Shown one piece after another: positions 2,102 to 36,332 of a stretch of 64,000 bases of DNA. A program made the translations under genes and the position numbers. The DNA is from Brucella haematophila (lineage in GTDB: Bacteria > Pseudomonadota > Alphaproteobacteria > Rhizobiales > Rhizobiaceae). The notes beneath the pieces were generated by a model. That model ran no database searches, was not told the origin of the DNA, and saw only the letters and a list, made by a program, of their open reading frames with translations. The number at the start of each line of letters is the position of its first letter. The stretch's first letter is position 1. The stretch spans positions 1 to 64,000 of the forward strand of contig NZ_VCPE01000021.1 in assembly GCF_005938105.1 (NCBI RefSeq), in the 5' to 3' direction.

Positions 2102-4352
2102 GTGGAGTAAGAAGCGCAGATGCGCTTCTCCTCCCCGAACCGTACTTGCACCTTTCAGCGCATACGGCTCTCCATTCAAGCTTGGCCCATGGCCATTGCA
2201 ACATCATGATAGTTCGACGTGACGGTGCTGCGGTTTTCGATCCGGACGATATATGGGTTCTCCTCCGGATTACGCCACAGGAATTGCGCCTTGGGGCTTG
2301 AGACAAGCCGTTGCAGCGCTTTCCCGACGGGATCACCACGTTCATTCCGACCAAACACGAGCCAGGTTTTCGCCTTGCCCGGTTCGGGGGCCCTGAACCA
2401 TTTCCGCATCAAGGGTTTGATGCGGGATCGGTATTTGTGCCCCAGCCAATGCGCCATTTTCCAGAACACGACATGGTCGATGCGCCGGAAGACGTACGCC
2501 GTGAAGTCGGCGAACTTGTAGAACGCCGCCCATCCCACCAATTGGCGGTTCAGGCCAGCGATCATGTCGACCGTACTGACACTATGATTGCCGGAAAGGG
2601 TTTCGGTAAGTCTGTGAACAAACCCCTTGGCCTTTTCCTTGGGTATTGTCGTTACGATGGACATCCGTCCATGCGCCCCTCGCTTGCGGATGATCCGGTG
2701 CCCCAGAAAGACGAAGCCGTCGTTGACGTGGGTGACATGGGTCTTCTCCATGTTCAGCGTCAACTTCAACTCACCTTCTAGAAACGCCCGGCATTCCTCG
2801 CGGATTTCCTCTGCCTGAACCTTGGTTCCTTTTACGATCACGACGAAGTCGTCAGCGTATCGGCAATAGGCAACAGCCGGTTTCCATTGCCGGTTCTCAC
2901 GAACCGTGATGGGGCGGCCTTGCTTGATGCCGAAGTTCCATGCCCATCGGTCCTTGCGGGCCTTCTTGTTCAGGTATTTCGCCTCCAGCCACATATCAAA
3001 CTCGTGGAGCATGATGTTGGACAGGAGCGGTGACAGAACGCCACCTTGCGGAACGCCCTCGCTTGAGGCTGTGAACAAGCCACGGTCGATGTGGCCTGCC
3101 TTCAGGAATCGATAGAGAAGATCGACGAACCGTCCGTCCTGCACCCGTCGCCGCACACATTTCAGAAGCAGCCTGTGATGGACCGTGTCAAAGTAGCTGG
3201 CGAGATCACCTTCGATGATCCAGCGGCCCTTCGTTCCACCTCCATCCTGTAGCTGTATCCTCACGGTGCGGACGGCGTGATGCACGCTGCGTTCCGGCCG
3301 GAAGCCATAGGATAGACGATGGAAATCGCTCTCCCAGATTGGCTCCATGGCCATCAGCATGGCGCGTTGGACAATGCGATCCGTCAGGGTCGGAATACCC
3401 AGTGGTCGTAGCTTGCCGTTCGATTTCGGGATATAGATGCGCTTGACCGGCTGAGGGCGATAACTCTCCTCCAGCAGGCTTGCCCGCAGGTCGTCCAGAT
3501 GCTGATCCAGTCTGACCTGCAGTCTTTGCTTATCCATTCCGTCGATGCCCGGCGTTCGTGCGCCATTTGACGCAAGAACAATCCGGGCGGCCTCGGCAAG
3601 CCATTCCCGATTGGCAATCAGCCGAAGAAGCCGATCAAACCTCCGGTTTGGATCGTTTTCGGCCCATGTTGCGAGCTTGTGCTGCATTTCGCTGATTATC
3701 AAAGGTCTTCACCTCGCTTGGTCAGATAGTTTGCACTTCAAGCAGTTTGAACTGTTCCCCTTCGCCATGTGGCAGGCTTTCCCTGCCGCGGACTACTACG
3801 AGAACTCCGCAAACACGATGGACATCAGGGTCAACTCCCTTGCGACGCAATACTTTGTTGTCATTCCATCATGCCTTCCCTCGTTCATATGCTGGACGTC
3901 AGCGTATTGGTGAGGCTGCCGGTCGCAGTCTTTTTCCTTGCTTTCCGCAAGTCGATGCCGATGCCATGGTCTGGCTGCATTCTCCCCATGACCCACCGCG
4001 AGCATCCTTACATCTGCGCTCGCGTTCGGATGCACGCCGACATACCTGTCCGGCGACATCATCAGCATTCCGCCTGTTAAGCCGTGTAGGCGAAGGCGAC
4101 CTTCCAGCCCTCAGATGCGAGTTAACCGGTTCGTGTTCCTCAACCTTCCAATACTTCAGCCTCGGGAACCATCTTGGCGTAACGGCTTCGCCTCAATCCC
4201 CTTTACCTGCGGGCTACGTCACCCTGCCAGTTGACAGCAGGTCACCGCCGCTTGGGCTCATGTCCCCTCGCAGCAAGGGACAGGCAAATCTTCACATCCT
4301 CCTTTCTCTTTGCATTCCAGTCATATGCCTCCCCGATTGGGGCGAGGCGCAC
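2102..4352 (-). ncRNA. Group II intron, full length (ribozyme plus maturase ORF)
   Basis: On the minus strand the intron begins GTGCG (first base at 4352) and ends ...CCAC (last base at 2102), matching the GUGYG...AY rule. A canonical domain V lies at about 2128-2173: GAGCCGTAT, then a GAAA tetraloop, then GTACGGTTC. It is followed by a short domain VI hairpin (AAGCGCA/TGCGCTT) near 2110-2127. Domains I to III occupy about 3703-4352. The host is the IS3 transposase gene in the same orientation, so splicing would restore an uninterrupted orfB. No defect is visible in the core elements I could check. Confidence 0.9.
2176..3702 (-). CDS. ltrA: Group II intron reverse transcriptase/maturase
   Basis: A 508-residue protein with the reverse-transcriptase blocks in order. 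They are an N-terminal RT0-like helix region, RPQPVKRIYIPKSNGKLRPLGIPTL (block 1), LSYGFRPERSVHHAV (block 2), IEGDLASYFDTVHH (block 3), GVPQGGVLSPLLSNIMLHEFD (block 4) and CRYADDFVV, with the catalytic YADD near residue 283. A maturase domain X follows (FYKFADFTAYVFRRIDHVVF). I see no HNH endonuclease zinc motif at the C-terminus, so mobility would probably use an endonuclease-independent route. It is encoded inside the intron loop, downstream of the ribozyme 5' domains. The frame is intact. Confidence 0.92.
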   Translation of the reverse strand: MIISEMQHKLATWAENDPNRRFDRLLRLIANREWLAEAARIVLASNGARTPGIDGMDKQRLQVRLDQHLDDLRASLLEESYRPQPVKRIYIPKSNGKLRPLGIPTLTDRIVQRAMLMAMEPIWESDFHRLSYGFRPERSVHHAVRTVRIQLQDGGGTKGRWIIEGDLASYFDTVHHRLLLKCVRRRVQDGRFVDLLYRFLKAGHIDRGLFTASSEGVPQGGVLSPLLSNIMLHEFDMWLEAKYLNKKARKDRWAWNFGIKQGRPITVRENRQWKPAVAYCRYADDFVVIVKGTKVQAEEIREECRAFLEGELKLTLNMEKTHVTHVNDGFVFLGHRIIRKRGAHGRMSIVTTIPKEKAKGFVHRLTETLSGNHSVSTVDMIAGLNRQLVGWAAFYKFADFTAYVFRRIDHVVFWKMAHWLGHKYRSRIKPLMRKWFRAPEPGKAKTWLVFGRNERGDPVGKALQRLVSSPKAQFLWRNPEENPYIVRIENRSTVTSNYHDVAMAMGQA

Positions 4353-13224: not shown

Positions 13225-13566
13225 ATGGCATCGAGCAGGCAGCAGTCGGAACGTTTGCGCAAGCAGCGCGAACGGCAGAAGGACTATCGCGATCGTTTGA
13301 GGGTACAGCGCAAACCGACGCGTGACGACATAGCACGAGTGCTGCTGCATTTTATGATCGTCAAAGCGGTGAAGTCTGGCAATCATGACGGGACGGAGAA
13401 GCTGATTGATATGCTTCTTGATGCGCTGGCGGATCAGGGCTTCGATAAAGATGCTTCATTAGAAGTCATTGATGACCTGATTGTCAGATACACAAAAAGC
13501 GGCTGGGATTTCCGTCGCAAGATGCATCTGAGGCCCGGCGGGGTTCTTGACGACACCGAACATTGA
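13225..13566 (+). CDS. Hypothetical small basic protein (113 residues)
   Basis: ATG 13225 follows CTGGAG. The first 35 residues are strongly basic and probably helical (MASSRQQSERLRKQRERQ, ending near RKPTRDD). Two amphipathic helices follow (IARVLLHFMIVKAVKSG and TEKLIDMLLDALADQGF), then a short tail. I do not recognise the family. Because the upstream region is packed with palindromes and a paralogous copy is decaying nearby, a DNA-binding or plasmid-maintenance role is conceivable, but no helix-turn-helix is apparent. Intact frame, ribosome site and partial duplication support it as a real gene. Confidence 0.65.
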   Translation: MASSRQQSERLRKQRERQKDYRDRLRVQRKPTRDDIARVLLHFMIVKAVKSGNHDGTEKLIDMLLDALADQGFDKDASLEVIDDLIVRYTKSGWDFRRKMHLRPGGVLDDTEH

Positions 13567-14036: not shown

Positions 14037-14086
14037 TGTCTGATTGATCAGACGCCTCCATTCCGGTGCTGGAACACCAGAATGGA
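14037..14086 (+). promoter_or_regulatory. Two hairpins in the leader of the protease operon
   Basis: GTCTGAT-TG-ATCAGAC (14037-14052) is a perfect dyad. TCCATTC...GAATGGA (14057-14086) encloses a second stem GGTG/CACC with one mismatch. They lie 36 bases before a 28-codon ORF and 325 bases before the first large gene. They may be an operator plus an RNA hairpin in a leader, or a terminator of whatever precedes. Confidence 0.5.
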
Positions 14087-14121
14087 GACTAACTTAGCCT
14101 GCCAACAACAGGAGCCAAGCT

Positions 14122-14208
14122 ATGCTGAGCATTATCGCTATTCGTTCGCAATTAAAAGATCTGCGCCCTGAATTCCTCGTCGGCATGGCGGCTCGACAGC
14201 GGAAATAA
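14122..14208 (+). CDS. Possible 28-residue leader peptide or small protein
   Basis: The ATG at 14122 follows AGGAGCCAAGCT, a good ribosome-binding site. The frame reads MLSIIAIRSQLKDLRPEFLV, then GMAARQRK, and stops at TAA 14206-14208. It is too short for standard gene callers. Its place after two hairpins and before a 200-base gap leading to the next gene fits either a regulatory upstream ORF or an independent small protein. I know no homologue. Confidence 0.45.
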   Translation: MLSIIAIRSQLKDLRPEFLVGMAARQRK

Positions 14209-14410
14209 TTTCCGCTCTCAACGTGTTCGGCGCTCTTTAACGCCCGAACTCCCAATTTCCCTTTTGACGCTCTGGTCGTGTGCGTTCGCGCGCAACGTCA
14301 CGGTCTTTGCTGTCTTCAAAATCTGACGCTGCTTGCACGGGCAAGCGCGGTCGATCTTTCACACCCATTTTGCTCCGGCGATCAACTATCGCTCCGGGGA
14401 AGGAGGACTT

Positions 14411-15265
14411 ATGTTTGCAGAAACCGTTATTGGCTACATTGATCTTATCGAACACCAACTCCCTGTTCGCAATCTCGGGCGCGAATTAAACGCGTCACTA
14501 CACCTATCATGGCTTTTTCATCAGATTGATCGTGCCGATGATCGGGCCAGACAGAAGCTCGCGGCTCGCGATACGCTGCTGCGGTGGGCGATCTGGAACG
14601 AAGGCGAGAAAATTTTCGGACTGATCGAAGAAGCATCAGCGCGTGCGAGGATTTCCGATAATACTGAACCGGCACGTACAATGCCGATCACTCGTGATAC
14701 GCTTAATCACGTCATCGAATCCGTTGCGTCAAAATCTGCCCCGGCCAGAAACGGCATTGAGATTGCCGCCGCCGCACTTCCGGCGAGACCGTATGCGTTT
14801 GATTTGCTGCATTATGATGCAGAGAAGAAACGGCTGCTGATGTTGAGCATGGCCTATGGCATCAGCGCGCACAAAGACATGTTGGATCAATGGCGTAATG
14901 AGGTGTCGACCATGCCATCTGTGTGGTCTCGTCTAGCACCACAGTACTACGGGATTGACATAGATCAATGCGAATGGGCGCTGATCGATCCGCTACTTAA
15001 TGCAAGTCAAGCCGAAGCCGGGATCTGGTCACTGGCTGATCTTGATCGTCTGATCGGAAAGGTTGGAATTGCGGAGAAAGTTTTACGTGTTCAGGAGGCG
15101 CTCAGAGAAGAACTCATCGTAGGGCTCGGCGACACATTCGCGAAGACCGAAGACGAGCAAGCGCAGTTCATCGATGAGGAGATTATAAGGATTGCACTCG
15201 AAGCGCTCGACAGCGTGGCTGTACCGCAAGTTCAAATCCTGAAGCCCGAAAACGCGTCGCGTTAA
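14411..15265 (+). CDS. Hypothetical protein, first large gene of the FtsH-like operon
   Basis: The start chosen is ATG 14411, directly after AAGGAGGACTT, a near-perfect ribosome site; the frame is open further upstream. The product of 284 residues is soluble, with no membrane segment or signal peptide. It begins MFAETVIGYIDLIEHQLPVR and is largely helical, acidic toward the C-terminus (KTEDEQAQFIDEEIIRIALEALDS). I recognise no family motif. It precedes the AAA+ gene by about 150 bases on the same strand, so it is probably co-transcribed and could be an adaptor, substrate or regulator of the protease. Confidence 0.75.
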   Translation: MFAETVIGYIDLIEHQLPVRNLGRELNASLHLSWLFHQIDRADDRARQKLAARDTLLRWAIWNEGEKIFGLIEEASARARISDNTEPARTMPITRDTLNHVIESVASKSAPARNGIEIAAAALPARPYAFDLLHYDAEKKRLLMLSMAYGISAHKDMLDQWRNEVSTMPSVWSRLAPQYYGIDIDQCEWALIDPLLNASQAEAGIWSLADLDRLIGKVGIAEKVLRVQEALREELIVGLGDTFAKTEDEQAQFIDEEIIRIALEALDSVAVPQVQILKPENASR

Positions 15266-15413
15266 CCAGACGTAGCCCGAGTATTTCCGGATCAGGTTCA
15301 GTCACTGGAAACGCTCTGTCTCTTTATTTTACGCAGATCCTGTTCCAAAATCGGTTCCCGCTTTTCGGGATGCGCTCTGGAATTCACTCTCCTTATATCT
15401 ATGAGGTCACTTC

Positions 15414-17273
15414 ATGACCACTTCACCACCCGGCGCGAGCCGGCTTGGGCAGCATCTGCTTGCCCGCCTGAAACATGCTGCCTATCGCGATTTGCGCCAG
15501 GTGTTCTGCGAACTCGATCTTCTGTCTCACACCGAAGTCGACGTCGATGGATTTTTCGCGATGCGCTTCAATATGCCGGAACAGACTTCTGATCCCGGCG
15601 ACGAAAACCGACCAGTACTCCCTCTGACCGGTCATCCAGTTCATGATCTGCGTGCATTGAACGCTCATCTCGGTGCCGGCTTTGATCTGGACGCTTCTGG
15701 CGTAAAACGCCAGTTCGCTCTCTCGCTGCCGTTTCCAAAGTCCTTGCCTGACATAGATCATCATCCGGTCGAGCGACCATATCTTTTGAAACTCCTACGC
15801 TGCTTTCGTGCCGAGCCGGACATTGGCGATATCGCAGTCTGTCATCTGCTGGCACGGGCTCTGGAGGAGGGGAGTTTCGGGCAAAACCACTTGATGGAGC
15901 TTTTACGCAGACGATCCGGGCTTGTCATTATACGCACCGATATCGAAGGCTTCGAAGATATTCTGCTTCGGATGTTGAGTGAACAGCGGCTTTATCGCGG
16001 GCATGTTGTAGCGCGACCTCTCGAGCATTGGGGAACGACAACAATCCGGCAGTTAAAGCGGACAAGGGGCCGCCTCCGTCCGGCAGATGTCATTATCAAT
16101 ACTATCGATGCTGACGGATTTGAGAAACTGGCACTGATTGACGAAGACAGCATTGGGGATGCACTGTCACGCGGCGAATGGCTTCTTGGTATCGTTGATA
16201 TGCAATACGAGATTCCGGCCGGGCTGAAAGTGGTGGCAGATATTGTCTTCGACACCGGCGCCCTTGACGGCGCACTTCTCAACAGGCTGCTCGATACGGT
16301 GACTGCACACGATGCCGACACCGTTTTTCCAGAGGAGTTCACACTCGGTTCATTACGAGAGTTGAGACACTCGTTCAGGGAGGCGGACACACGGCAGGAA
16401 ACCTTCGCTTATCTGCTGGCCCAGTGGGGGCTGGAGGGGAGAAAGCAGGCACATCCGGTGCAGGAGCAGAAGCAAAAGCAGAAAGAAGCAGATAAAAAGA
16501 AGGATAAGACCGATGACAAAAACCCGTTCTCGACAGGAGAACGCGGTCGACATGGCAGAAAGATTGTTTCCGACAGTCGATTGATTGAACCTGAAGCGCT
16601 CGATGATGACTTCAGTGACGTCGGTTCCGCAGAGAGCGCCATACGTCGAACATCAACTCTATGCGTGGAAAACCTGTCAGGCTATGGCGAGGCGGTGGAT
16701 TGGGCGCTGGCGCTCAAGGAAGACCTTGCATTGTGGACGTCAGGATCGCTCGTCTGGTCTGATATCAGCACTCGGCTGCTTCTGTCTGGCCCACCTGGCA
16801 CCGGCAAGACCACTTTTGCACGGGCGCTGTGTAACAGCCTGCGCATTCCTGTCCTTGCGACTTCTATCGCGACATGGCTTCGGATGGGCCATCTTGGTGA
16901 TGTGTTGCTGCGCATGAAGAGTGCTTTTGAGGAAGCGGCGTCTCATGCCCCGGTCATCCTGTTTATTGACGAGATCGACAGCATCGGGCGACGACAGGAT
17001 CCGTCCCGCGATTATGCGGATTACTGGAATGCTGTCGTCAATCAACTGCTCGAATTGATGGATGGTGCCGTTAGACAGGAAGGCATCGTCATTGTGGGTG
17101 CGACCAATAGGTCTGACGATATTGATGAGGCATTGTTACGGTCTGGACGGCTGGAAACCCATGTCCGGATCCCGAAACCTGACACGGATGCACTGACCGG
17201 CATTCTCGCACATCATCTGGGCGCTGATCTCGATGCTGTGCTGCAAACACGACAGGCGGAGCAACAGCGATGA
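15414..17273 (+). CDS. AAA+ ATPase, FtsH-like, with long soluble N-terminal region
   Basis: A 619-residue protein. Residues 1-350 are a novel soluble region with no membrane helix, unlike FtsH. Residues 358-385 are a highly charged linker (EQKQKQKEADKKKDKTDDKN). The AAA+ module follows: Walker A GPPGTGKTT near 459, Walker B LFIDEID near 517, sensor 1 GATNRSDDIDEAL and an arginine finger in RSGRLETHV near 577. The FtsH pore-loop aromatic (FVG) is not conserved; the region reads LRMGHLGD. The frame stops before the AAA lid, which is encoded by the next gene (ATGA overlap at 17270). It probably forms a hexamer that feeds the M41 peptidase. Confidence 0.85.
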   Translation: MTTSPPGASRLGQHLLARLKHAAYRDLRQVFCELDLLSHTEVDVDGFFAMRFNMPEQTSDPGDENRPVLPLTGHPVHDLRALNAHLGAGFDLDASGVKRQFALSLPFPKSLPDIDHHPVERPYLLKLLRCFRAEPDIGDIAVCHLLARALEEGSFGQNHLMELLRRRSGLVIIRTDIEGFEDILLRMLSEQRLYRGHVVARPLEHWGTTTIRQLKRTRGRLRPADVIINTIDADGFEKLALIDEDSIGDALSRGEWLLGIVDMQYEIPAGLKVVADIVFDTGALDGALLNRLLDTVTAHDADTVFPEEFTLGSLRELRHSFREADTRQETFAYLLAQWGLEGRKQAHPVQEQKQKQKEADKKKDKTDDKNPFSTGERGRHGRKIVSDSRLIEPEALDDDFSDVGSAESAIRRTSTLCVENLSGYGEAVDWALALKEDLALWTSGSLVWSDISTRLLLSGPPGTGKTTFARALCNSLRIPVLATSIATWLRMGHLGDVLLRMKSAFEEAASHAPVILFIDEIDSIGRRQDPSRDYADYWNAVVNQLLELMDGAVRQEGIVIVGATNRSDDIDEALLRSGRLETHVRIPKPDTDALTGILAHHLGADLDAVLQTRQAEQQR

Positions 17274-18088
17274 CGGGTGGCAAACCAGATGAAGGTATCA
17301 GGCGTTCGCGCGACCTGCGTCCTCTGGCGCTGAAGGCACAGGGCATGACCGGGGCCGATATCGAGCGGATTGTCCGTCAGGCTCGCCAGCAGGCACGCCG
17401 CGAGAAGCGTCGGCTTACCTGGACAGATATTGAAAAGGGCATATCCGGCAATCGCAGATCAATTCTGCCGGAGGAACGCTGGCGCATGGCGGTGCATGAG
17501 GCGGGTCATGCCGTCATTCGACATATATTGCAAGTCGGTCATCCACTGACGCTCAGCATTGAAGAACAGGTGGGGGTCGGGTTTGCAACGGAGCGTCGCA
17601 AGCTTGTTCCGCTGGAAAAGGATTGCGAAGATAAACTTGCCGTGATGCTGGCGGGAAGGGCAGCGGAAGAGCTTGTCCTGGGGAATGTCTCTGTCGGCTC
17701 CGGGATGCAGCCGGGTAGCGATCTCGCGAATGCAACCGATCTGGCACTCGCAATGGAAACGACGTACGGCTTTTCCAAAGAACGGTCATTGCTGTTTTGC
17801 GACGGCCTGACACGAGGAGAACTGATCCATGCAAACCATCCCGTAACGAACCGTGTCAATGCGCGGATGCAAAAAGCCTACGACATTGCCCGTCACGGGC
17901 TTATCCGTTACGCGGTGGCACACACGACGCTTTCCAAAATACTACTCGAACATGGCGTTCTAGAAGGCGAAACCGTCACCGCCATTCTTGACGATGCCAT
18001 CCGGCAACAGGATCAGCAGGGTAGTCATGTTTCGGTGAGCGCAGCAGATAACAACTCTAAGGACACGAACGCACCCGGTCCGACCTGA
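17270..18088 (+). CDS. M41-type zinc peptidase subunit with AAA lid
   Basis: A 272-residue protein. Residues 20-60 look like the AAA lid (GMTGADIERIVRQARQQARR). The M41 peptidase domain then has HEAGH at 76-80 and, in SGMQPGSDLANATDLALAME, Asp151 at the position of the third zinc ligand of FtsH. The C-terminal helices (NRVNARMQKAYDIARHGLI) match the FtsH protease fold. It starts inside the stop of the AAA gene in a different frame. Either the protease is naturally split and translationally coupled, or a frameshift separated a formerly single gene. The intact frames and the new ATG favour a functional pair. Confidence 0.85.
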   Translation: MTGGKPDEGIRRSRDLRPLALKAQGMTGADIERIVRQARQQARREKRRLTWTDIEKGISGNRRSILPEERWRMAVHEAGHAVIRHILQVGHPLTLSIEEQVGVGFATERRKLVPLEKDCEDKLAVMLAGRAAEELVLGNVSVGSGMQPGSDLANATDLALAMETTYGFSKERSLLFCDGLTRGELIHANHPVTNRVNARMQKAYDIARHGLIRYAVAHTTLSKILLEHGVLEGETVTAILDDAIRQQDQQGSHVSVSAADNNSKDTNAPGPT

Positions 18089-18201
18089 ACAGCCGTTCCA
18101 GACTGACGCCCAGCCCAACCGACAATCTGAATTCATTCCAAAAACGCGCTCGCAAACGCGGGCACGAACGATCCCGCATATCCAGACGAAAGGAAGATGT
18201 C

Positions 18202-18546
18202 ATGGCTATTGTTCACAACGATGGTAAATTCGACCGGGAAAGACTTGCAGCAGAAATCAAGGCCCTCAAGGCGCTTGTTCATGATCTCGAACGCTTGCTC
18301 AATGGAGAGCATCCAGACCCCAAGGAACTGGCGGAAGCGCCATTGATCAACAACTGGGATTTTGATCGTCGGAACACAACATGCCTTGTGGGCACATTCC
18401 TGGGTCATCCGCGTCTGGGACGTATCGTGCCAAATGGCATTACCTCCGAACTCTGGTACGTAAACCCGGACGCAGGATATGCGCGTACATTCAGTCGCTT
18501 CTACCGTCTCGGTAAACCGGCCCGTTTTCGGGACGGCAATCGTTGA
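18202..18546 (+). CDS. Hypothetical 114-residue protein (short plasmid-type family)
   Basis: ATG 18202 follows AAAGGAAGATGTC. The N-terminal helix (RERLAAEIKALKALVHDLERLL) is followed by GEHPDPKELAEAPLINNWDF and a C-terminal half rich in aromatics (CLVGTFLGHPRLG, TSELWYVNPDAGYARTFSRFYRLG). I recall similar short proteins on other Hyphomicrobiales plasmids (DUF6634-like), but cannot confirm it. It is probably the last gene of the protease operon, 113 bases after the M41 gene. No function is known. Confidence 0.65.
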   Translation: MAIVHNDGKFDRERLAAEIKALKALVHDLERLLNGEHPDPKELAEAPLINNWDFDRRNTTCLVGTFLGHPRLGRIVPNGITSELWYVNPDAGYARTFSRFYRLGKPARFRDGNR

Positions 18547-18948: not shown

Positions 18949-19434
18949 TTAGTGTGAAGTTTTCATCTTGCGAGATGAAGCGAAGCGCTGAGCTTCCCGG
19001 TCGATTGATTTTGCTCCCCGTTTTTCGGCTCGATCGATCTTCCGGGCAACATATGCCTTGGCGCTTTCTGTCATGGATCGGGGGACAGGAATACCGTGTT
19101 CTCTCATTTTGCTATGTGCCCATTTTTCAGCCTGCAATTCTTTTACGTGTACTGGTAATTTTGGCCCATCAAAATGAAGGTGCGCGTGTGCGCATTCATG
19201 TAGAAAGACATAAAGGCTTTTGCGAGTAACAGGCCGGGGAGCTTCTATCCGACGTATCTTACCGCCGTATGCAACCCCGGTCAGACGTTTCCTGAATTTT
19301 ACAGTATAACCTTCAGGAACATAGGACATGCCGATTTGGTAGAACCTGTCGGCGGCAGCGCGACGCGCAGCTTGTAATTCCAGGCCTGTCATAGGTTTCA
19401 TGCCAGCGTGGGTGGGTTTATTATCAATCATCAA
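18949..19434 (-). CDS. Zincin-like protein with HExxH motif
   Basis: A 161-residue protein. LYVFLHECAHAHLHF places an HECAH motif at residues 79-83, and VKELQAEKWAHSKM supplies a Glu near residue 103 as candidate third ligand. This resembles the metallopeptidase core of ImmA/IrrE-like proteins, although I see no helix-turn-helix. The C-terminus is basic (KIDRAEKRGAKSIDREAQRF). No signal peptide is present. ATG is at 19434, just before an AT-rich intergenic region. Its relation to the M41 protease operon nearby, convergent on the other side of a hairpin, is unknown. Confidence 0.65.
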   Translation of the reverse strand: MMIDNKPTHAGMKPMTGLELQAARRAAADRFYQIGMSYVPEGYTVKFRKRLTGVAYGGKIRRIEAPRPVTRKSLYVFLHECAHAHLHFDGPKLPVHVKELQAEKWAHSKMREHGIPVPRSMTESAKAYVARKIDRAEKRGAKSIDREAQRFASSRKMKTSH

Positions 19435-19963
19435 ATACTCCTTGTTTTAAAATGACTGAGCATCAGCTAAAAAATGCTGACTTTTAAATTAAAGCATAAA
19501 AATACAATAATATCAAATGGTTGGATGTTCAAAGGTCGCTGAAATGCCTTAAAACAGATATAAATTGCCCTGTTTTAACCCCCTTAAAATTGAAAATAAA
19601 TGACATATTGTCGCACTTCTTCTGAAGAAGGAATACGAACCGTTCAAAGGTCGAGTTGACGAACAAACTGGATCAACGAGCCAGCAATGGCTCGGCGTGA
19701 CCGTACCAGACGAAGCTTGCGGAAACTGTTACCTCAACCTCAGCCTAAACTTCAGCGACGACAACGGTATATGACCGAACCCCGTGCCATGGACTATTAC
19801 CGTCATCTTTTTCCAGCTAACATCATTGCCAAGCAATGTGGCCGTATTTTTGGTTTCCGCCAAGCTCGGTTTTTCAAATTTTTTATCGGCGGCGCATGAC
19901 ATTGTTTGCGCCGGTGGATTATTGGTCTCACAATATGTCTATTGGCTGGTTGGAGATGATAAA
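19435..19963. other. AT-rich intergenic region
   Basis: This stretch is visibly more AT-rich than its surroundings and should hold the promoter of the minus-strand zincin gene. TTCAAAGGTCG occurs twice (near 19528 and 19643). A 70-codon frame from 19687 (MARRDRTRRSLRKLLPQPQP...) has no support beyond being open. Confidence 0.4.
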
Positions 19964-20518
19964 ATGTTAAAAGAAATTCCATGGAACATGTATGGCGAGA
20001 ACGCTCAGGTTCTTGATGAAGCGGACATTCCAGTTTGTGAAGGCTGCGCCTATTTTTGTATCTTGAAATATGAGGGTATCGATCAGCTGATCTCACGGTT
20101 ACGTATTTTCGATCTCGATATGCGGTTTCACTATATGCTCTACGGTCACTTTTCAAAAACTAATGCGATCATCCTTGCTGGTAGCTTACCGTCCGCGCGC
20201 GAAGAGTTCGATGGCGTGCGCTGCCATGTTGGTCAGCTCGAAGTCAGTAGTGGGAGCTTTTATGGAACCGCCCCCATGACCCCGCCTGCAACCAAATACG
20301 CACTAAAAGTGGTGGATCCAGGTAATACGACGCTCGCTCGAAATGAGATGTACACGGTCTGGGGCTTCGGAATCCGTCCTTGTTCCACGCATGAAACTGA
20401 AATCGCCTTGTTTCCAGAAGAGGAAGCGGTGCGTCGGGCGATAGAAATCGTAGCCGAATACGATTGTTCGATCGACGATGAACGGCGTGAAGAAGATCGA
20501 GGACGTTTGGCACCTTGA
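19964..20518 (+). CDS. Hypothetical protein (184 residues)
   Basis: The start chosen is ATG 19964 behind GGAGATGATAAA; the frame is open 60 codons further upstream, but that part looks non-coding. The product is soluble with a cysteine pair near the N-terminus (PVCEGCAYFCIL) and no membrane segment. It has regular strands (RLRIFDLDMRFHYMLYGHF, NAIILAGSLPS, MYTVWGFGIRPCS) and an acidic, charged C-terminus (DDERREEDRGRLAP). I recognise no family. It is AT-richer than flanking metal-transport genes, suggesting separate acquisition. Confidence 0.55.
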   Translation: MLKEIPWNMYGENAQVLDEADIPVCEGCAYFCILKYEGIDQLISRLRIFDLDMRFHYMLYGHFSKTNAIILAGSLPSAREEFDGVRCHVGQLEVSSGSFYGTAPMTPPATKYALKVVDPGNTTLARNEMYTVWGFGIRPCSTHETEIALFPEEEAVRRAIEIVAEYDCSIDDERREEDRGRLAP

Positions 20519-25030: not shown

Positions 25031-28000
25031 ATGAAAGCAGTCGTGTTTCCTAAGGCCGAGAGTGGAGCGTCGCGAAACTTTGATGGAAACCGTATCAGGC
25101 TTGAGACGCCAAGTGTTGTTCAGCTGCAAATCGGGCCCGAGGAAGTCGCGCGCTTTGAGCGCGATGGAAACAACCTGCTCCTTATTCTTGAAGACGGTTC
25201 TGTCGTAGTCATCGAGAATTTCTTTGTCACAAACGGTGACGCTCGCAATGATCTGGTTTTCGAAGACGGAAACGACGTTACATGGTGGGCGCAGTATGGC
25301 GAGACCTGGTCGGGATTTGATATAGCTGAGATCAATTCAACCACCACGGCCGCACCTTTGCCGATGGCACTTCTGGCAGGCATCGGCCTGGCTGCAGGCG
25401 GAGCGGCGATTGCTCTTGGCTCTGGCGGCGGTAGTGATGATGGCCCGTCCAACAGGGCGCCTGTTGTTTCTGCTGACCCGGTTGAGACTGCAGAGGACAA
25501 CGTTTTCAAGGGCGTGATCACTGCAAAAGACGTTGATGGCGACACGCTGACTTTTGAACTTAGTGGCGAAGGCCCTAAGCACGGTACTGTCACTATTAAT
25601 CCGGACGGAACCTATACCTATACACCTCATGCCGACTATAACGGCCCAGACAGCTTCGATGTCGTCGTATCCGACGGTCGCGGTGGGAAAACGATTGTTA
25701 CCGTTCCAATCACGGTGACGCCAGTCGTTGACATTGCTCCCGATGAGGTTGTCACCCATGCGGGTGAGCCGGTGACCACCGCTGTACTTTCCAACGATAT
25801 ATTCAAGGATCCAGACGCCCGCATCAGCGCCGTAACCCCTGGCGCACACGGATCCGTCGTCGTTAATCCAGATGGAACGATAACTTATACACCAAAGCCT
25901 GGTTTTGTTGGAACTGACACCTACACTTATACGGTTTCAAGCGGCGGTACCGAAGAGACAACGACTGTCACTGTTACTGTGACCAATCAGCCTCCGGTCA
26001 CGGAGCCAGAATCCGTTATTGCGCCTGAAGATACCCCCGTATCGGGCAATCTGCTTGGAAACGATAGCGATCCAGATGGCGATGCGATTTCCATTAGCCG
26101 CTTCGAGGTCGACGGCTCGACCTATCTTCCTGGCGAAAAAGTTAGCATTCCTGACATTGGCATGCTTGTGATCAACGCTGATGGCTCATATTCCTTTGAA
26201 CCAGTTGCCAACTGGAACGGGATGGTTCCGACAATTACCTACACTGTCAGTGACGGCAACGACGGCGGTTCGACGACAAGCACTCTTGATATAGAAATTA
26301 CGCCCGTTGATGACGTGCCGGAGACTGTTGGTACGATTGACGATCAGGCGAGCAATGACGCTGATGCCATCACGTCGCTTGATGTGAGCGATTTCTTCAA
26401 GGATGTTGATGGCGATACGCTTACCTACACTGCAACGGGCCTGCCGAAGGGTCTGACGATTGATCCGAATACGGGCATTATCAGCGGCACCATTGATCCA
26501 TCCGCAAGCCAGGACGGTGTGGGCGGTGCGCATAGTGTGACGATCACGGCGAATGATGGCACCAGCACTGTCGAACAAACCTTCACATGGACTGTTTCCA
26601 ATCCTGCTCCAACCGCCAATGATGATGCTGTAAGCACTGACGAAGATACGCCTGTGAGCGGCAATGTGCTGTTTGACAGCGCAGCAGGCGATGTGACTGA
26701 CACTGATCCAGATGGTGATGAACTCGTCGTTACAAAGTTTGAGATCAATGGAACCAACTACAACGCTGGCGAAGATGCCACAATTGTGGGCGTTGGTACG
26801 TTTAAGCTCGAAAGCGACGGCTCTTACACCTTTACGCCGGACAAAGACTGGAACGGCACGGTTCCGACCATCACTTATACGATCAGCGATGAGGAAGGCG
26901 GCACAGATACTGCCACTCTCACCATCACGGTTGATCCAGTCGATGACGCTCCGGTGATTGCTGGGGGAGACCAGGACGGAACAGTGATTGAGGCAGGTGT
27001 TGTCGATGACAACACACCAGTTCCTGGCAATCCAACCGCGACAGGAAGTTTTGACGCATCCGATGTCGATGGCGATACGCTTAGCTGGAGCGTGCTGGGC
27101 ACTCCTGATGAAACCTACGGCACCTTCACCATCGATGCTGTAACAGGGGCTTGGTCCTATACGCTCGACAATTCGCTGAGTGCTACTCAGGCTCTGAACG
27201 AAGGCGATAAGGTTGAGCTGAGCTTCGATGTCCAGGTGAGTGACGGTAAGGGCGGAAACGAAACCCGAACAGTCGTCATTACAATTAACGGCACCAACGA
27301 TGCACCGGTTGCAAATGCCGACACCGGATCAGTGTCGGAAGCAGGCGTTCAGGACGGTGGTAACGATCCGATAAGTGGGACTGCCACTGCAACCGGCAAT
27401 GTCTTGACGAATGACACTGACGTTGACGATGGCGAAAAGGCCACGCTGGCCGTAAATGAAGTCAAATTCGGTGACACAATCGGCTCGGTTGGATCAAGCA
27501 TTCAGGGAACCTATGGCAAGCTCACGCTGAATAGCGATGGCAGCTACACATACGAACTTGATAACAGTTTGCCACAAACTCAGTCTCTGAAGCAGGGCGA
27601 GCAGGTAACCGAGACTTTCACCTATACAGCGGTTGACGTTAACGGTGCGACAAGCAGCAGTACCTTGACCATCACAGTCACTGGCGCCAATGACCGTCCG
27701 GAGATCACGTCCGGAACGACTGAAGCAAGTGGCGAAGTGACCGAACAGGGAACCGCTAACCCTGATCAAAACAGTGTGGTCAGCGGAACATTGGCAGCAT
27801 CCGATGTTGATAAGGATGCGACACTGACCTGGAGCGTCGTCGCCACCAACGGGACATATGGCACAATCGGCATTGACCCCCAAACAGGTGAGTGGACGTA
27901 TACGCTCGACAACACTCGAGCTGCCACACAAGCCTTGAATGATGGTGAACAAAGAACAGAAACGTTCACAGCAGTGGTGACGGACGAGCACGGAGCTACT

Positions 28001-31000
28001 CGCGAACAGGTCATTACTGTTACTGTCAATGGTAGCAACGACGATATCACGGGTCTTGGCAACGAAACGATAAGTGTCCTCGAGGACGGCGTCGTTAACG
28101 GCTCGCTGCAAGATTTCGTCTCTGATGTTGATAACAACATCATTTTGACCGGCTTCTCGGTGGATGCCGATGGCGACGGTATTGATGAAACGTATACCGC
28201 GGGCCAAACAGTTGAACTGAAAAACGGTGCAGATGTCCTTGGCACTCTGATCATCGGCGAAGACGGGAAATATAGCTTCACACCCGCTCCGAACTACGGC
28301 GGAAATGTTCCAACTGTTACCTATACCATGGCAGAAAGCGGTGGTGGCAAGTCCGTAACGCAGACGCTTGACTTCTCAATCACAAAGGTTGCCGACGCCC
28401 CTGATCTTGAGGCAAATAAGAACCTTAATACTGATGAAGACACCGCAGTTTCGCTCGGTCTGAAGACACCTGTTATCACTGACACCGGCACAGGTACGAC
28501 TAACAATGATAATCCAGAGCGTCTGGGCGAAATCACGCTGACTATCAGCGGCGCGGGCGCTGATGGCGTAACGCTTTCTACGGGTGCGAAAACGCTTACG
28601 CCAGTCGATGGTAAGATCACGATCGTCTTGTCTGATGTGCCTCATGTGAGTGATGTGCCTGCTGCTGACGACGCCCGAGGGATCTATTATCTGACTTCTG
28701 CAGAGTATGCGGCACTTGTGGCAAACCCACGTGCTGAAAGCGGCAATAATTTTACTGTAACCGTTAGCGCGACCAGTTACGAAGTTGATGCCAGCGGCGC
28801 AAAGATCGCTGGCGTGGCGGGAGCGTCAAGCTCGCAGGTCATCAATGTTGATGTTCAGGCAGTCACCGACGGGGCGGAGCTTAAGAGCGATGTCTCAACG
28901 CTTACTTTTGCTGAGGATAGCAAGATCGATTTGTCGAGCCATCTTACTGCGGCTTTGACTAGTACCGATGCGAATGCTGGAAACGACACCGACGGTAGTG
29001 AACGTTATTCGTATACTATCAGCAGCCTGCCTGCGGGATCGATCGTAAGCATCAATGGAACCAATTACACGGTTGGTGCGAGCGGCTCTGTCACTTCGCC
29101 TGAAACCAGCTCGTTCTCGACGGCACCAAATATTTCCATTACGCCACCACGAGATTTCAGCGGTGATATTAATGATGTCAAAATCACGCTGAATACCCGT
29201 GACACCGACAGTGATTCAGCGGGCATTCCGGCGACGGTCGAGAGCAGCGTGACAATCGATCTGCGGGTTACCCCCGTTGCTGGCGATGTCACTGCGACCG
29301 ACAGTACAACAGCGGAAGATACGGCAGTTCACTTCCTTGCAGGTGTGGCCATCACTGATACGGGTACTGCAGCTGGCTCCGAGGTCATCAACGCAGTATC
29401 TTTTGAAGTCCCCACCGGTTGGACTGTTGGGACGCCCGATGCATCGGCAGGCTGGAGCTACAATGTCTCTGGTACCACTGCAACGATCACGTTTGATGGT
29501 TCATTGAGCCAAACTGATCGAGAAGCTGTGCTTGATGCCTTCACGATTACGCCGCCAGTGCATAGCAGCCTGGATGCTACAATCAAACTGTCGATCACAA
29601 GCACCGATACCAATGGTTCGGACAGCGATACCAAGACAGTTGATCGCGACGTGAAAATCACCGTTACCCCTGTGGCCGAGCGAACCGACAGCGACACTGA
29701 TGGCAATGGACAAAACGACGTTACGATGAATGGCGATCACGCCTATTCTGTCGCAGGTCAGGAGGATGCCTGGTTTGCGCTTGGTAATAATTACACGGGC
29801 AGCTCGAACACAAGTGGGGGTTTTGACGCCCTTCAGACAGCTTGGTCGAATGCAGACTCCGATGAATTTACCTATGCCGTATTGACGCCAACGCTCTCGT
29901 CTGACACGGCAACTGATACAGTGATTGGCACTGAATTCCGCTATTCAACAGATAATGGGGTTACCTGGCAGACGCAGACCTTTGTCGGTGAGCCAATCTG
30001 GGTACCATCTATTTACCTCAACACGCTGCAGGTTAAGCTTCCAGCTGATGTTTCAGGCACGCTCACCATTGGAGTGCAGGCGGCAACAGTCGACTATGAT
30101 GATGACCGCGAAGTATCCACGCTCCCGCTCGATCCTCCGCATGAAAGCGGAGACGGTGTCAATGTAGCCATCAGCGGTGAAGCCACGCTTTCTTTGATCA
30201 AGTTCGAACCAGTTGCTGATGAAGTAACCATGGCGCTTAATGGTCGTGCTACGGGTCTTGAAGATACGGCAATTCCGCTTTCGATCAAGACCACAAGTTC
30301 GGATGATTCTGAAACCTTCAACGTCACCATCTCGGGCATCCCTGATGGCGCTGTAATCACCTATAACGGCGAAAAACTGACTGTCAGTGGGGGTACGGTT
30401 ACGATTGTTGGCTTCAACAATAGCTACCCAATGACCGTCACGCCGCCGCTAAATAGCAACGACGATTTCAAATTGACCGTCAGCGCAGTTTCGGTCGACG
30501 GAACGTCAACATCGGCTCCTGTTTCCCGCACGATTGATGTCGCGGTTACCGGTGTCGCCGATAATGCGGTCATCACGCTGCCCAATGTTGGTTATACCAC
30601 AACGGAGGCAGCGCTTGATGGAGGCGATCACAAGGTTCAGTTATCCAACGTGATCACCGCAGTGGCGTCCAGCGATACAGACGGATCGGAAGTCACCACG
30701 CTTCGCATCACCGGCCTTTCGGAGAACTTCTCGCTAACCGGAGCGACAATGGTCGTTTCGGGCACCGGAACAGAACGGGTCTGGATGGTTGCTGCAAGTG
30801 ACATTTCAAAGGTGTCTATTGTCGTTCCTGAAAACTTTAGTGGAACGGTGGATCTGAAGGTTGCTGGTGTTACGACTGAAAACGATGGCGATTCTCGCAC
30901 AGGTGCGCCGACGGATGTGAGCTTTACTGTGACGCCTTCGCCAGAGGCGCTGATCACATCAACTGCCACTCTCATCGAGGATGAAATCACCAAACTCAAT

Positions 31001-34000
31001 CTGGCAATCATCCCCCAAAACGGTGATACAGATGAAAAATTGGGCAGTATTTTCATTCCGCTTGATTACGACACGAGCAAATTTACGCTCTATGTCGGCG
31101 GAACAGAAATTTCGGCAGCTAACCTTGAAACGAAGGAAATCGATGGGGACATCTACTACATTGTCCCGTCTGAACAGATCGGTAGTCTGGGCGCAAAAGG
31201 TGCCACCAATCTCGACGGCGGTCTTGGTGAGTTGAATTTCCTTTATGAAGTGATTGATCCATCCACTGATGACACCTTGACTGCCGTGAAGGAACTGAAG
31301 AATGGCTCGCTTACAATTGACGCGCTGCCGGTAACAGATGCTGTCGTTGCATCGATTACTGCGATCAACATGACTTCAGCCACTGGTACGACTTCTGATA
31401 ATGTTCCCAATGACGATGCTCAGCCTGATACTGCAACCGTTACGACCAGCGGAACGGTGACTGTAAACCTGCATGTGAACTCAGAAGACACGGATGGCAG
31501 TGAGCATCTGGTTCGCGTGGTTATTGAGGGTGTTCCTGATGGTGTCACCGTCAACGGCGCATCCCAGATCGGGGCGGGTTCTTGGCTCCTTATTTATGAT
31601 GGCGCGGATGCACGATCGATAGGCGCAGGCGGCATCGACCTTCCTGTCGAATTCGTGGTCGGAAAGGGTGCGTCTAACATCACATCGCCGATCACAATGA
31701 CTGTGCTTGCACAGGACGAGGGCCAGAACGCCAACTCGCCTGCCAACATCGTTCCTGATTCCGTTAAATGGAACCTCACCGTCAATCTGGGCGACGGCCA
31801 ACCTTATCCCGCTCCAGTTATTGATGAATGGAACTACAATGGCGCGCAGGGCACAGAAGAAAAGGAATTTGGCCTAGACAGTGTTATTGATGCCCAGGTC
31901 ACAACCGGTGATCCGAGTGTGGCTTATAGTTACACTGTCACGCTCACCAATCTGGCACCAGGAACAATCGTCGACGGGATGACCTTCACTACCATCAACG
32001 GCGTGCCGACCTGGTCGGCGACCGTCGTGGTACCTGTAGGCGGCGATAGTCAAGCTGCACTCGATGGCTTGCTTGCTGGTATCAAGATTACGCCACCGCT
32101 TAACAGCAATGAAAACAATGCCGAGTTCAACTTTGATGCCAAGCTGACGGCTGCAGCAGTAGGTGGCACAAGCACTGAAGCAGTCACCAAGCCGGATATG
32201 CCAATCATTCCGGTGACGGACGAGGCGACTGTTACCATCGACGTTCCTGACGTCGCCGAGGGCGAAACCAGCGTCACTGCAACGATTTCGGCGGTCGATG
32301 TAGCAGACGGGACGTTTGGGACGATCGTTGACGGCAAGCTCTACGTTCAGGTTTCGACCAACGGCAATGACAACGGCACATTTACTGACGGTGAAGGCAG
32401 AACGCTGACGCTTACCGACATCAGTGGGGTCGAAGGCGTGCCAAATGGCAAATATTATGTTGTCGAAATCGGCACTGCAGGTGGTTCGGCTGAACTCACC
32501 TATACTGCCCCTGTTGGAACCGTGCTCCAGCCCGGCGACGTAACTTTCAATGCCTGGGTACAGACACAGGAAACAGGTGCAACTAATACCGAGGCAGCTT
32601 CCGCTTCCAGCAACGCTGAAATCTTGATCGTCAACAATGGCGTCACGGTGGAAAGCCAGCCAGTCACCGGCAAGGAAAGCGTCTCTTCAGACAAGACCAA
32701 CGCGATTGAGTTGACTGGTCTGTCGATTACTCTCAAAGACAATGATGGTTCGGAAGCTATCAAGTCCATTCTATTGTCCGGTGTTCCGGTCGGCTTCCTG
32801 CTTTATGTCGGGTCAAGTGCAGGTGATGCGACTGTCGCCTCCCAGGCTTCTAATGCCGGCGGCGACGGCAGCACCAATACCTGGGTACTTTCCTCTGATG
32901 GGACGATGCCGGCTTATGTAGCAATCCTGCCTGCACCGCATTGGAGCGGTACACTTACGGATCTGTCGCTTGTTGTTGAATCGGGCGAGAATAGCCTGCC
33001 GACAACCCGGGTGGACACTGTGCCGCTTGAACCAGTGACCATTGAAGCGGTCGCGGACGGAATAGCAATTGATCCAACCTTGTCGTTTGGCAAGGAAGGT
33101 CGCGTTATCAGCTTGAACCTGAATGCAGCCATGGTTGACGCTGCCGCGGCAGTCGCAGGTGTTGCAGATGCAAGCACTGAAACCACAACCTTGAAGTTGA
33201 CCGGGCTCGGAGCTCACGCAGCCTTTTATATCGGCGGTGAGCTTATCGACGAAAATAACGCTACGATATCGATTCTTTACGATCAGCTCACCAATTCCTA
33301 CACGATCACTGGCTTGTCGCAGGACAATCTCGATAAGCTTGGTTTCGTTCAAGCAGCATCCGCGCTTACCGATCAGGACTCGTCCACGGCGGGTACGCAG
33401 ATCAGAGTCGAGGCATGGACGGTTGAAAGTGCAACAGGGGCAGAATCTCAGCATGTAACCGACACGTTGACGCTTGCTGTTACACCAACAACAGCCACAA
33501 CAGGTAACGACACCTTTATTTGGAGTGGTTCCAACATCAACGGCCGAGCAGGTTCCGACACAGTTGCTCTGCGCTTCGGCGAAGATCTCAGTGGTGATGA
33601 CCTTAAGCAACATCTTAAGAATATCGAGATTATTGATCTGGGAATTCACGGGACGAATGCAATCACGGATCTGACCCCCGATGATGTTCAGGCTATAACC
33701 GATGCAAACCATATCCTGACCATCAAAGGCACATCGGAGGATATGCTGTCGCTTTCAGGCAACTGGGTGCTGCAGTCTGACGGATCGTACACTGGAACAG
33801 GTGAAAGTGGCACGACGGTCACTCTGAAGCTTGACGGCGGCGTGACGATTGAAGGTCATGAGGATGCCGTCGCGTCAAGTTCTGACCATTCGACCCTGTT
33901 CTCCTTTGCACTGGCAGAAGAAACAGAAAGCTTCGGTTTATCCTCGATTGATACGCAGACAGCCACAACGCCTGTCGTTGAGCAACAGGCTGCTCTTTCA

Positions 34001-34193: not shown

Positions 34194-36332
34194 GTGAACG
34201 CCGCGCCAAACCAATCTGGTCACGCCCCTTCCGGGGCGCGCGCCAACCGAGGATGGATCGAAGCCGTAATGCGCGTCGCAACGCATTACGGCATGGCCAT
34301 CTCGGTCGAGCGCATCAAACTTGATATGGCATGGTCCACAGATGAGGACCGGTTGGCTACACTTGCGCGCTCGGTCAGTCTCTCCATCCGCCAGATTGAT
34401 GAGGGCGCTGCAGCTGTATCGGCTCTAAGACTCCCACTACTTGTCGAGTTCAATAGCGGCGAAGTCGGCGTCATTGAACGGGAAACCGCCGAAGGGTTCG
34501 GGGTAATTCTGGCCGGTGACAAGGGGCTTATGACCCCGCTATCGCGTGAGGACTTGGCCAAGCGCCTGCGGCGACTGTTTGTTCTCCGTCCTGTTTCGTC
34601 GCGGCCCGACCGACGGATCGACGACTATATCGCGCCTTGGCGTCCCGACTGGTTGCGTAGTATAGCACTTGCCGACCTTAAGCCTTACCGCGCGGTCATG
34701 GTTGCATCCCTTGTGACGAACGTGCTGGCGCTTGCTGGCACGATTTTTTCGATGCAAGTCTATGACCGTGTCGTACCCGGACAATCGATGAGCACGCTCT
34801 GGGTCTTGTTCATCGGCGTTATGATGGCGATCCTGTTTGGTATGGGTGTACGTACGGCTCGCAGCCGTATTACCGATATAGCCGGAAAAGCAGCTGACCT
34901 GCGGATATCGGACCGGGTGTTCGGCCACGCGCTTCGTATACGCAATACCGCACGACCACGCTCCACCGGAACTTTTATCTCGCAGATCCGCGAACTGGAA
35001 CATGTCCGCGAAATGCTGACTTCGACGACCGTGGCAGCGATCGCAGATGTTCCATTTTTTCTGCTGTTTTGCGTGTTGTTTTTTTACATCGCCGGCGCCT
35101 TGGTCTGGATTCCTCTTTTGGCGATGGTTTTGCTCATCGTGCCTGGACTATTGGCACAAAAGCGGCTGCGTCGACTGGCTGAAACAAACACCCGAGAATC
35201 TTCGCTGCGTAGTGCGATGCTTGTTGAAGCCATCCAAGGGCTCGACGATATCAAGTCGATGCAGGCGGAGACGCGTTTCCAGAACTTGTGGAACCATTAC
35301 AACGAAACCACTTCCGGCTCATCAATGGAGCTGCGCGATCTTGTTAACCGGTTGTCGTCTTTTGCGCAGACGGTTCAAGGAGGGGTGTTTGCGGTCGTCA
35401 TTTTCTTCGGCGCACCGATGGTTATGGCTGGCGAGCTAAGCACGGGCGTGCTTGTCGCAGCCTCGATGCTGTCTTCAAGGATGCTTGCACCACTCGCGTC
35501 GGTCACCCAAATCCTCAATCGCTGGCAACAGGCCCAGGTTGCGCGCAAGGCACTTGACGGCCTGATGGCTCTTCCCGTCGACGCGCCTCAGGAAGAGCAG
35601 CGAATTCATAAACCTACCATCAGCGGCGCGTTTCGCATCAAGGATGCAATATTCGGGCATAATCCGGAAACTCCCGTTCTTAAAATTGATCAGCTTACGA
35701 TCGCGCCGGGCGAGCGCATCGCTATTTTAGGACGCAATGGCGCGGGTAAATCCACGCTCTTGTCTGGTCTTGCCGGCCTTCTCGAGCCACTGGCTGGGGA
35801 AATCCGTGTCGACGATATCGTTATGGGTCTTATCGATCCGACAGACGTCAGGCGTGACATCGGGGTCATGGGGCAGGGCGCTCGGCTGTTTCACGGTACA
35901 TTGCGTGAAAATCTTACGCTCGGTGCGCCTATGGCAACCGACGAGGATGTCCTTGATACGCTCGAAAAAATGGGACTGGTGGATTTTATCAATAGGCTCC
36001 CTGAAGGTCTCGATTATCTCGTGCAAGAGGGCGGCCTCGGTTTATCGGGTGGGCAAAAACAAGGGCTTTTGCTCGCGAGGCTCCTGCTTAGGAAACCACG
36101 TGTTCTATTGCTCGATGAACCGACAGCTTCCTTTGATGAAGTGTCGGAGGCAGCAGTTATTCAGGTGCTTGGCCAACTGGGCCGTAACATTTCGGTTATT
36201 GTTGCAACACACCGCCCGGCGATGCTGCGGATCGTTGACCGTCTAATCGTGGTCAATAATGGTGTGGTTGCGATGGATGGGCCTAAAGATCAGGTTCTAA
36301 ACCAGTTGCGATCCGGAAAGGCTGCTGCATGA
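34194..36332 (+). CDS. Type I secretion ABC transporter (LapB/HlyB-like)
   Basis: A 712-residue protein starting at GTG 34194, four bases after the adhesin stop. Residues 20-140 are a degenerate C39-like domain without the catalytic Cys, as in LapB and HlyB (CLD-type). A six-helix membrane domain spans about 160-440. The nucleotide-binding domain has Walker A GRNGAGKST near residue 519, the signature LSGGQ near 618, and Walker B LLLDEP. It energises export of the adhesin across the inner membrane. It overlaps the next gene by four bases. Confidence 0.93.
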   Translation: MNAAPNQSGHAPSGARANRGWIEAVMRVATHYGMAISVERIKLDMAWSTDEDRLATLARSVSLSIRQIDEGAAAVSALRLPLLVEFNSGEVGVIERETAEGFGVILAGDKGLMTPLSREDLAKRLRRLFVLRPVSSRPDRRIDDYIAPWRPDWLRSIALADLKPYRAVMVASLVTNVLALAGTIFSMQVYDRVVPGQSMSTLWVLFIGVMMAILFGMGVRTARSRITDIAGKAADLRISDRVFGHALRIRNTARPRSTGTFISQIRELEHVREMLTSTTVAAIADVPFFLLFCVLFFYIAGALVWIPLLAMVLLIVPGLLAQKRLRRLAETNTRESSLRSAMLVEAIQGLDDIKSMQAETRFQNLWNHYNETTSGSSMELRDLVNRLSSFAQTVQGGVFAVVIFFGAPMVMAGELSTGVLVAASMLSSRMLAPLASVTQILNRWQQAQVARKALDGLMALPVDAPQEEQRIHKPTISGAFRIKDAIFGHNPETPVLKIDQLTIAPGERIAILGRNGAGKSTLLSGLAGLLEPLAGEIRVDDIVMGLIDPTDVRRDIGVMGQGARLFHGTLRENLTLGAPMATDEDVLDTLEKMGLVDFINRLPEGLDYLVQEGGLGLSGGQKQGLLLARLLLRKPRVLLLDEPTASFDEVSEAAVIQVLGQLGRNISVIVATHRPAMLRIVDRLIVVNNGVVAMDGPKDQVLNQLRSGKAAA

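What the first reader, a model, noticed from the sequence alone, without database searches (positions are those of the whole stretch)
14037..18546. Plasmid-type operon around a two-gene, membrane-anchor-free FtsH-like protease
The AAA+ protein (15414) and M41 peptidase (17270) together correspond to FtsH, but the AAA lid is on the second polypeptide and there are no membrane segments. The N-terminal 350 residues are unlike FtsH and the pore-loop aromatic is missing. Unknown proteins lie on both sides (14411, 18202), with a structured leader. This could be an undescribed proteolytic system, for example regulatory, defensive or for plasmid control, with the 14411 product as adaptor or substrate.
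Basis: partly seen in the sequence, partly recalled or inferred. Interest (0 to 1): 0.75.

Follow-up and report, generated by a model that had tools for sequence, protein, structure and literature searches.

The report
Split FtsH-like protease plus nuclease-fold protein
This is a recurrent gene set of rhizobia and their relatives in which an FtsH-type protein-shredding machine has no membrane anchor, is cut into two genes, and usually sits beside a gene for a nuclease-shaped protein, which suggests an undescribed conflict or maintenance system whose function is not yet tested.

Summary
ORFs 15414-17273 (AAA) and 17270-18088 (AAA lid plus M41 zinc protease) are intact, overlap by ATGA and lack membrane segments. 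The split is conserved: 58 of 82 distinct AAA/M41 junctions overlap by 4 bp and 15 by 8 bp in another frame. Split forms fall in one clade, apart from canonical FtsH. Neighbours recur. Gene A (14411) probably has a PD-(D/E)XK nuclease fold; most relatives keep the catalytic motif, the window's lineage has lost it. In a family-wide search with A alone, 82 of 85 motif-intact A genes are followed by AAA and M41; in the window's genus all 19 A loci read are motif-dead and 12 lack the pair. A small gene (13225) and DUF6634 (18202) also recur. The AAA chain looks like a tandem AAA protein with a degenerate first domain. 'Plasmid-type' is not supported here. Best reading: a soluble two-chain FtsH/Cdc48-like protease that controls, or is guided by, a nuclease-fold partner, carried as an accessory conflict or maintenance module. 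Function is inferred. The open-licence papers searched gave no description.

The parts
13225..13566 (+). gene s, 113 aa protein of no known family; recurrent member of the module
   Evidence: s-family HMM hits in 83 of 118 loci examined (75 distinct sequences); exactly two copies found in the own genome, each beside a gene A
14037..14410 (+). conserved structured leader of gene A with several predicted hairpins (e.g. 14038-14053, 14056-14087)
   Evidence: 73-92% identity where aligned in 16 of 19 genus loci; alignment folding z about -6.9 against column shuffles; no Rfam family near its gathering score
14122..14208 (+). candidate 28-codon leader ORF with AGGAG upstream
   Evidence: comparable ORF of 25-32 codons in 12 genus relatives, absent from L138; translation not shown
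14411..15265 (+). gene A, probable PD-(D/E)XK nuclease-fold protein; catalytic D..DxK columns read D,S,A here
   Evidence: profile convergence with the rhizobial A family; motif table; AF2 model and VIA matches
15414..17273 (+). AAA chain of the two-chain protease (619 aa), soluble
   Evidence: PF00004 E 1.5e-32; Walker A and B residues, sensor-1 Asn and two Arg invariant in the 36 rows of A4
15774..16451 (+). N-terminal domain (residues 121-346), read as a degenerate AAA domain without Walker motifs
   Evidence: AF2 topology; VIA aligns model 139-619 with both AAA domains of p97 and of Rix7; no sequence signal
16647..17225 (+). active AAA domain with the first helix of the small domain
17270..18088 (+). 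M41 chain: rest of the AAA lid (residues 15-56) plus zinc protease with HEAGH (17495-17509)
   Evidence: HExGH in 86 of 94 M41 ORFs and 13 of 13 fused ORFs, 79 of 86 distinct M41 sequences
18202..18546 (+). gene D, DUF6634 protein (114 aa)
   Evidence: PF20339 30.4 bits, cut-off 27; D-family HMM hits in 43 of 118 loci

Best explanation
SUPPORTED BY SEQUENCE: the AAA and M41 ORFs are the two halves of one soluble protease. The break falls inside the AAA small domain, so each chain lacks part of the AAA module, and translation is probably coupled through the ATGA overlap. INFERRED: the chains co-assemble into an FtsH/Cdc48-like ring; the degenerate N-terminal AAA domain forms an upper tier, the active AAA domain unfolds proteins and passes them into the M41 chamber. 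Gene A, a probable PD-(D/E)XK-fold protein, is its dedicated partner. In most relatives A is probably an active nuclease whose level or activity the protease controls, as a toxin-like or abortive effector. In the window's lineage its active site is dead, and A is more likely an adaptor or sensor that presents clients, with s and DUF6634 as accessory subunits or clients. The whole is an accessory conflict or element-maintenance module.
For: Split conserved: 66 of 90 junctions overlap by 4 bp (64 ATGA) and 15 by 8 bp; 58 and 15 of 82 after removing repeats. All 27 split rows of the tree lie in one 100/100 group of 29, with two fused Phyllobacterium copies nested in it. Gene orders in the 80 loci: 36 A-AAA-M41-s, 12 with s divergent upstream, 5 s-A-AAA-M41-D, 5 with D between AAA and M41, 22 others, several cut by contig ends. 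Family-wide search with A alone: motif-intact A followed by AAA+M41 in 82 of 85; genus sample: 19 A loci, all motif-dead, 7 with and 12 without the pair. Presence and absence are interleaved on the A tree, at least 3 changes. Fold of A. In Sulfitobacter a gene annotated as a PD-(D/E)XK endonuclease lies about 20 bp upstream of a fused AAA-M41. Precedent: YqgP, whose cytosolic domain has a type II restriction-endonuclease fold, is an FtsH substrate adaptor (PMC7231995, abstract and passages).
Confidence: 0.45

Rival explanations
1. Plasmid or island addiction system working like IetAS: the protease and A form a toxin-antidote pair that harms cells losing the element.
For: repA is the next annotated gene, divergent, in 4 of 9 annotated plasmid records read around A (L005, L163, L167, L170). 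IetAS is an AAA/protease pair for plasmid stability (PMC8562856 passages). Members of an integrase-like cluster lie in 39 of 118 loci (one member scanned).
Against: 15 of 100 fetched family regions lie on contigs over 3 Mb; no replication gene among the 20 window ORFs searched; three of the four repABC cases look like one plasmid lineage by gene lengths; M41 is not a subtilisin; protease-less A-D loci persist.
Confidence: 0.2
2. Anti-phage defence: A is the effector nuclease, released or activated when AAA-M41 senses infection.
For: Patchy distribution (A in 77 of 394 genomes of the family). Neighbours include type I restriction subunits, mad5-like, HipA and ResIII proteins, an HNH cluster in 18 loci, and nuclease or phosphoesterase genes beside some relatives. 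AAA matches IetA defence models, but only through the AAA domain.
Against: Nuclease motif dead in the window; the neighbour survey covered 61 chosen proteins and had no control; no PADLOC match up to E 1 for A, M41, s or D.
Confidence: 0.25
3. Regulatory protease of host physiology: s, A or D are ordinary regulators turned over by AAA-M41.
For: Structured leader with a small ORF; YqgP-FtsH precedent.
Against: Sporadic distribution and absence of the protease from 12 of 19 genus A loci are unlike a housekeeping regulator.
Confidence: 0.15
4. Frameshift, decay or annotation artefact: a broken ftsH.
For: Single components are broken in some genomes (A in L132 and G006, M41 zinc motif in L014/L136).
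Against: 82 distinct junctions, two different frame relations, one clade, motifs largely intact; two canonical FtsH genes exist besides.
Confidence: 0.02

Closest known systems
FtsH / m-AAA proteases (M41)
   Different: Two polypeptides split within the small domain; no membrane anchor seen; extra N-terminal domain read as degenerate AAA; His in the pore loop here; outside the canonical group of the tree
Cdc48/p97-type tandem AAA proteins
   Same: Two AAA-like tiers in the model; p97 aligns over residues 139-619
   Different: First tier lacks Walker motifs; comes with an M41 protease on a second chain
IetAS (AAA ATPase plus subtilisin, pTiC58)
   Same: Accessory AAA and protease pair, found on alphaproteobacterial plasmids (PMC8562856 passages)
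   Different: Protease of another family; AAA similarity confined to the AAA domain; extra genes A, s, D
YqgP rhomboid, FtsH adaptor of Bacillus subtilis
   Different: A is a separate protein without rhomboid part; the likeness may be fold only

Membership tests
FtsH | AAA and M41 domains on one polypeptide | tested here: not met
FtsH | N-terminal transmembrane anchors | tested here: not met
   hydropathy maxima 1.29 and 1.09 in the window; in relatives 91 of 91 M41, 13 of 13 fused and 84 of 87 AAA ORFs of 150 aa or more are at or below 1.9
FtsH | HExxH zinc site with downstream Asp | tested here: met
   HEAGH at 17495-17509, SDL downstream
FtsH | falls in the canonical FtsH group | tested here: not met
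   7 canonical rows form their own 100/100 group
FtsH | aromatic-hydrophobic-Gly pore loop | tested here: inconclusive
   HLG in the window; YL, FL or HL in most relatives; register by hand
PD-(D/E)XK nuclease fold (gene A) | core fold | tested here: inconclusive
PD-(D/E)XK nuclease (gene A) | D...(D/E)xK catalytic motif in the window copy | tested here: not met
   D, S, A at the three columns
PD-(D/E)XK nuclease (gene A) | motif in relatives outside the genus | tested here: met
   85 of 89 family-sample A genes with more than 4 kb downstream
DUF6634 (gene D) | Pfam PF20339 above cut-off | tested here: met
   30.4 bits against 27
IetAS | partner protease of the subtilisin family | tested here: not met
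   the partner is M41
type II toxin-antitoxin system | toxicity of one part, neutralised by the other | not testable with these tools
   needs an expression assay

The most novel reading that the evidence does not exclude
A new class of conflict system in which a soluble, two-tier, two-chain FtsH-type protease holds a PD-(D/E)XK nuclease in check; when the nuclease dies in evolution the protease becomes dispensable and the pseudo-nuclease is kept as an adaptor or sensor.
Probability: 0.3. Interest if true: 0.85.

Novelty: new variant of a known kind. Interest (0 to 1): 0.62.

Why it matters
FtsH is described as the membrane-anchored AAA+ protease (start of abstract of PMC8943139 in the listing). 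A soluble, split, probably two-tier relative would show how the AAA and protease halves can be uncoupled and would give a natural two-component system for mechanistic work. If A is its client, it adds a protease-controlled nuclease to the accessory gene pool of rhizobia; A was found in 77 of 394 sampled genomes of the family.

Tried and rejected
Rejected: programmed frameshift (two different frame relations at the junction); broken ftsH; plasmid backbone gene for this window (only 20 ORFs searched). Set aside: the plasmid hits L011 and L178 (L178 groups with canonical FtsH; L011 has a strong hydrophobic segment, and was not in the tree) and L010 (no family M41). Led nowhere: PLSDB with the window's A (none) and with the AAA N-terminus (none); phage collection (21 records, the 20 shown at 25-37% identity, those annotated being mostly FtsH or hypothetical); Rfam (two hits far below gathering score); Pfam and PDB searches of the N-terminal domain; hhalign of the two AAA domains; A over the class (2 of 385 genomes, the second weak) and the order (9 of 397); a paper search for Upx, the top fold match (nothing on it in the rows shown). 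Papers: no held paper has the word DUF6634; searches for split, plasmid, anti-phage or repABC-linked FtsH gave no description of this system in the rows shown. PMC9020784, PMC8562856 and PMC7231995 were read as passages only.

Rows dropped or repeated: eight M41 sequences occur twice among the 118 loci, six of them the same genome regions fetched again. The scan used one motif and kept 80 of 126 hits. The tree used 27 of 73 thinned split rows (89 in all) and left out L151, whose genome is incomplete. In one search, L274 (no A ORF over 200 aa) and 10 loci with under 4 kb downstream in the fetched stretch were dropped; of these 10, 2 show the pair and 8 show none or only part of it, as expected if the sequence ends. 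Of 113 places listed, 100 were fetched, 3 were in hand and 10 weaker ones were not read. Broken A pieces in G006 were not read. The neighbour survey used 61 of 132 candidate proteins, chosen by me, without a control; only 25 of the matched families were shown each time.

Full report
WHAT IS THERE. The AAA ORF (15414-17273) holds an AAA core. The downstream ORF (17270-18088) begins with the AAA lid and continues into an M41 zinc protease. The two overlap by four bases, ATGA. No stretch of either is hydrophobic enough for a membrane segment. The own genome has two further M41 genes of canonical size on other contigs, so this is not the housekeeping enzyme.

THE SPLIT IS OLD. PLSDB, a genome-contig scan (80 loci kept of 126) and unnamed relatives gave many relatives. 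Over 90 AAA/M41 pairs, 64 overlap by ATGA, one each by GTGA and TTGA, and 15 by eight bases; 9 do neither, among them the 5 loci with D in between. After removal of repeats the numbers are 58 and 15 of 82. Four- and eight-base overlaps put M41 in different frames relative to AAA, which argues against a conserved programmed frameshift and for translational coupling. The maximum-likelihood tree (53 rows) puts the 7 canonical FtsH rows apart (100/100). The 27 split rows lie in one 100/100 group of 29 that also holds two fused Phyllobacterium copies, nested beside Aminobacter forms (98/93). The other soluble fused forms branch outside. The simplest story is loss of the membrane anchor, then one split, then one re-fusion. 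Several branches are long and the tool warns of false joins.

THE MODULE. Iterated profiles started from the window's A and from rhizobial A converge on the same 94 ORFs in 92 of 118 loci (86 distinct sequences). A small gene s (window 13225) occurs in 83 loci and D (DUF6634) in 43. Most of these loci were found through M41, so AAA and M41 are there by choice; A, s and D are not. In the 80 loci, A was found in 67; several of the others are cut by contig ends. The commonest orders are A-AAA-M41-s (36), s divergent then A-AAA-M41 (12) and s-A-AAA-M41-D (5, as in the window); in 5 D lies between AAA and M41 (L018, L049, L058, L062, L081). Eight fused forms have D just upstream (L079, L090, L152, L154, L156, L157, L159, L160). 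Twelve genus loci, one in the own genome (C13), carry A and D without the protease, 9 of them with s. The own genome has two s genes, each beside an A.

NUCLEASE AND PROTEASE GO TOGETHER. To avoid selecting on the protease I searched with the A profile alone: 77 of 394 genomes of the family have a match. The profile itself came from A genes at M41 loci, a bias that I could not remove. Of 113 listed places, 100 were fetched. Of the 89 with an A ORF over 200 aa and more than 4 kb downstream, 85 have an intact motif and 82 of these have AAA and M41 next; the exceptions are L246, L269 (AAA but no M41) and L272. Of the 4 others, 3 have the pair. In the genus sample all 19 A loci are motif-dead, 7 with and 12 without the pair. 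On the A tree of the genus the two states are interleaved, at least 3 changes. So within the motif-dead lineage the protease came or went repeatedly, while among motif-intact A genes its absence is rare. The pooled Fisher test (2e-8) treats relatives as independent and is only a guide.

CONTEXT. repA is the next annotated gene, divergent, in 4 of 9 annotated plasmid records read around A (the others). Of 100 fetched family regions 15 lie on contigs over 3 Mb. An integrase-like cluster occurs in 39 of 118 loci and an HNH cluster in 18 (one member of each scanned). Chosen neighbours include type I restriction subunits, HipA, ThiF and ResIII proteins, without a control. Metallophosphoesterases recur beside D or fused forms. 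In Sulfitobacter a gene annotated as a PD-(D/E)XK endonuclease lies about 20 bp upstream of a fused AAA-M41.

MECHANISM. The break inside the small domain means that each chain lacks part of the AAA module; co-assembly is the natural inference. FtsH-type action (unfold, thread, cleave) follows from the retained motifs. That A is client or adaptor is inferred from linkage, from the association above and from the YqgP precedent. Whether the purpose is defence, element maintenance or regulation is open; I lean to a conflict role.

NOVELTY. Searches of the held open-licence papers gave nothing on DUF6634 and, in the rows shown, nothing on such a split system.

Noticed in passing
window 14122-14208: Candidate 28-codon leader ORF with a Shine-Dalgarno-like AGGAG in front of gene A, ending at a predicted hairpin; similar ORFs in 12 genus relatives, suggesting attenuation or a small peptide.
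   Followed up: partly
window 18949-19434 (-): 161-aa protein with an ECAHAHLHF stretch, weak hit to PADLOC peptidase_U41 (4e-6); a cluster with 9 loci near A genes (cluster 21).
   Followed up: no
window 19784-20518 (+): Protein resembling a family that recurs near protease-less A loci (cluster 18, 10 loci); no Pfam match over cut-off.
   Followed up: no
L014 7001-7807 / L136 7851-8657 (one genome), L073, L091: M41 copies that lack the HExGH zinc motif although the frame is open; candidates for non-proteolytic forms.
   Followed up: partly
L144:6691-7524, L139, L147, L009, L164, L176, L179: Calcineurin-like metallophosphoesterase genes recur beside DUF6634 or fused AAA-M41 genes.
   Followed up: no
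window 2176-3702 (-): Group II intron reverse transcriptase/maturase.
   Followed up: no
window 25031-34189 (+): 3052-codon ORF (not scanned) followed by ABC transporter and HlyD genes (34194-37507), as in a type I secretion locus.
   Followed up: no
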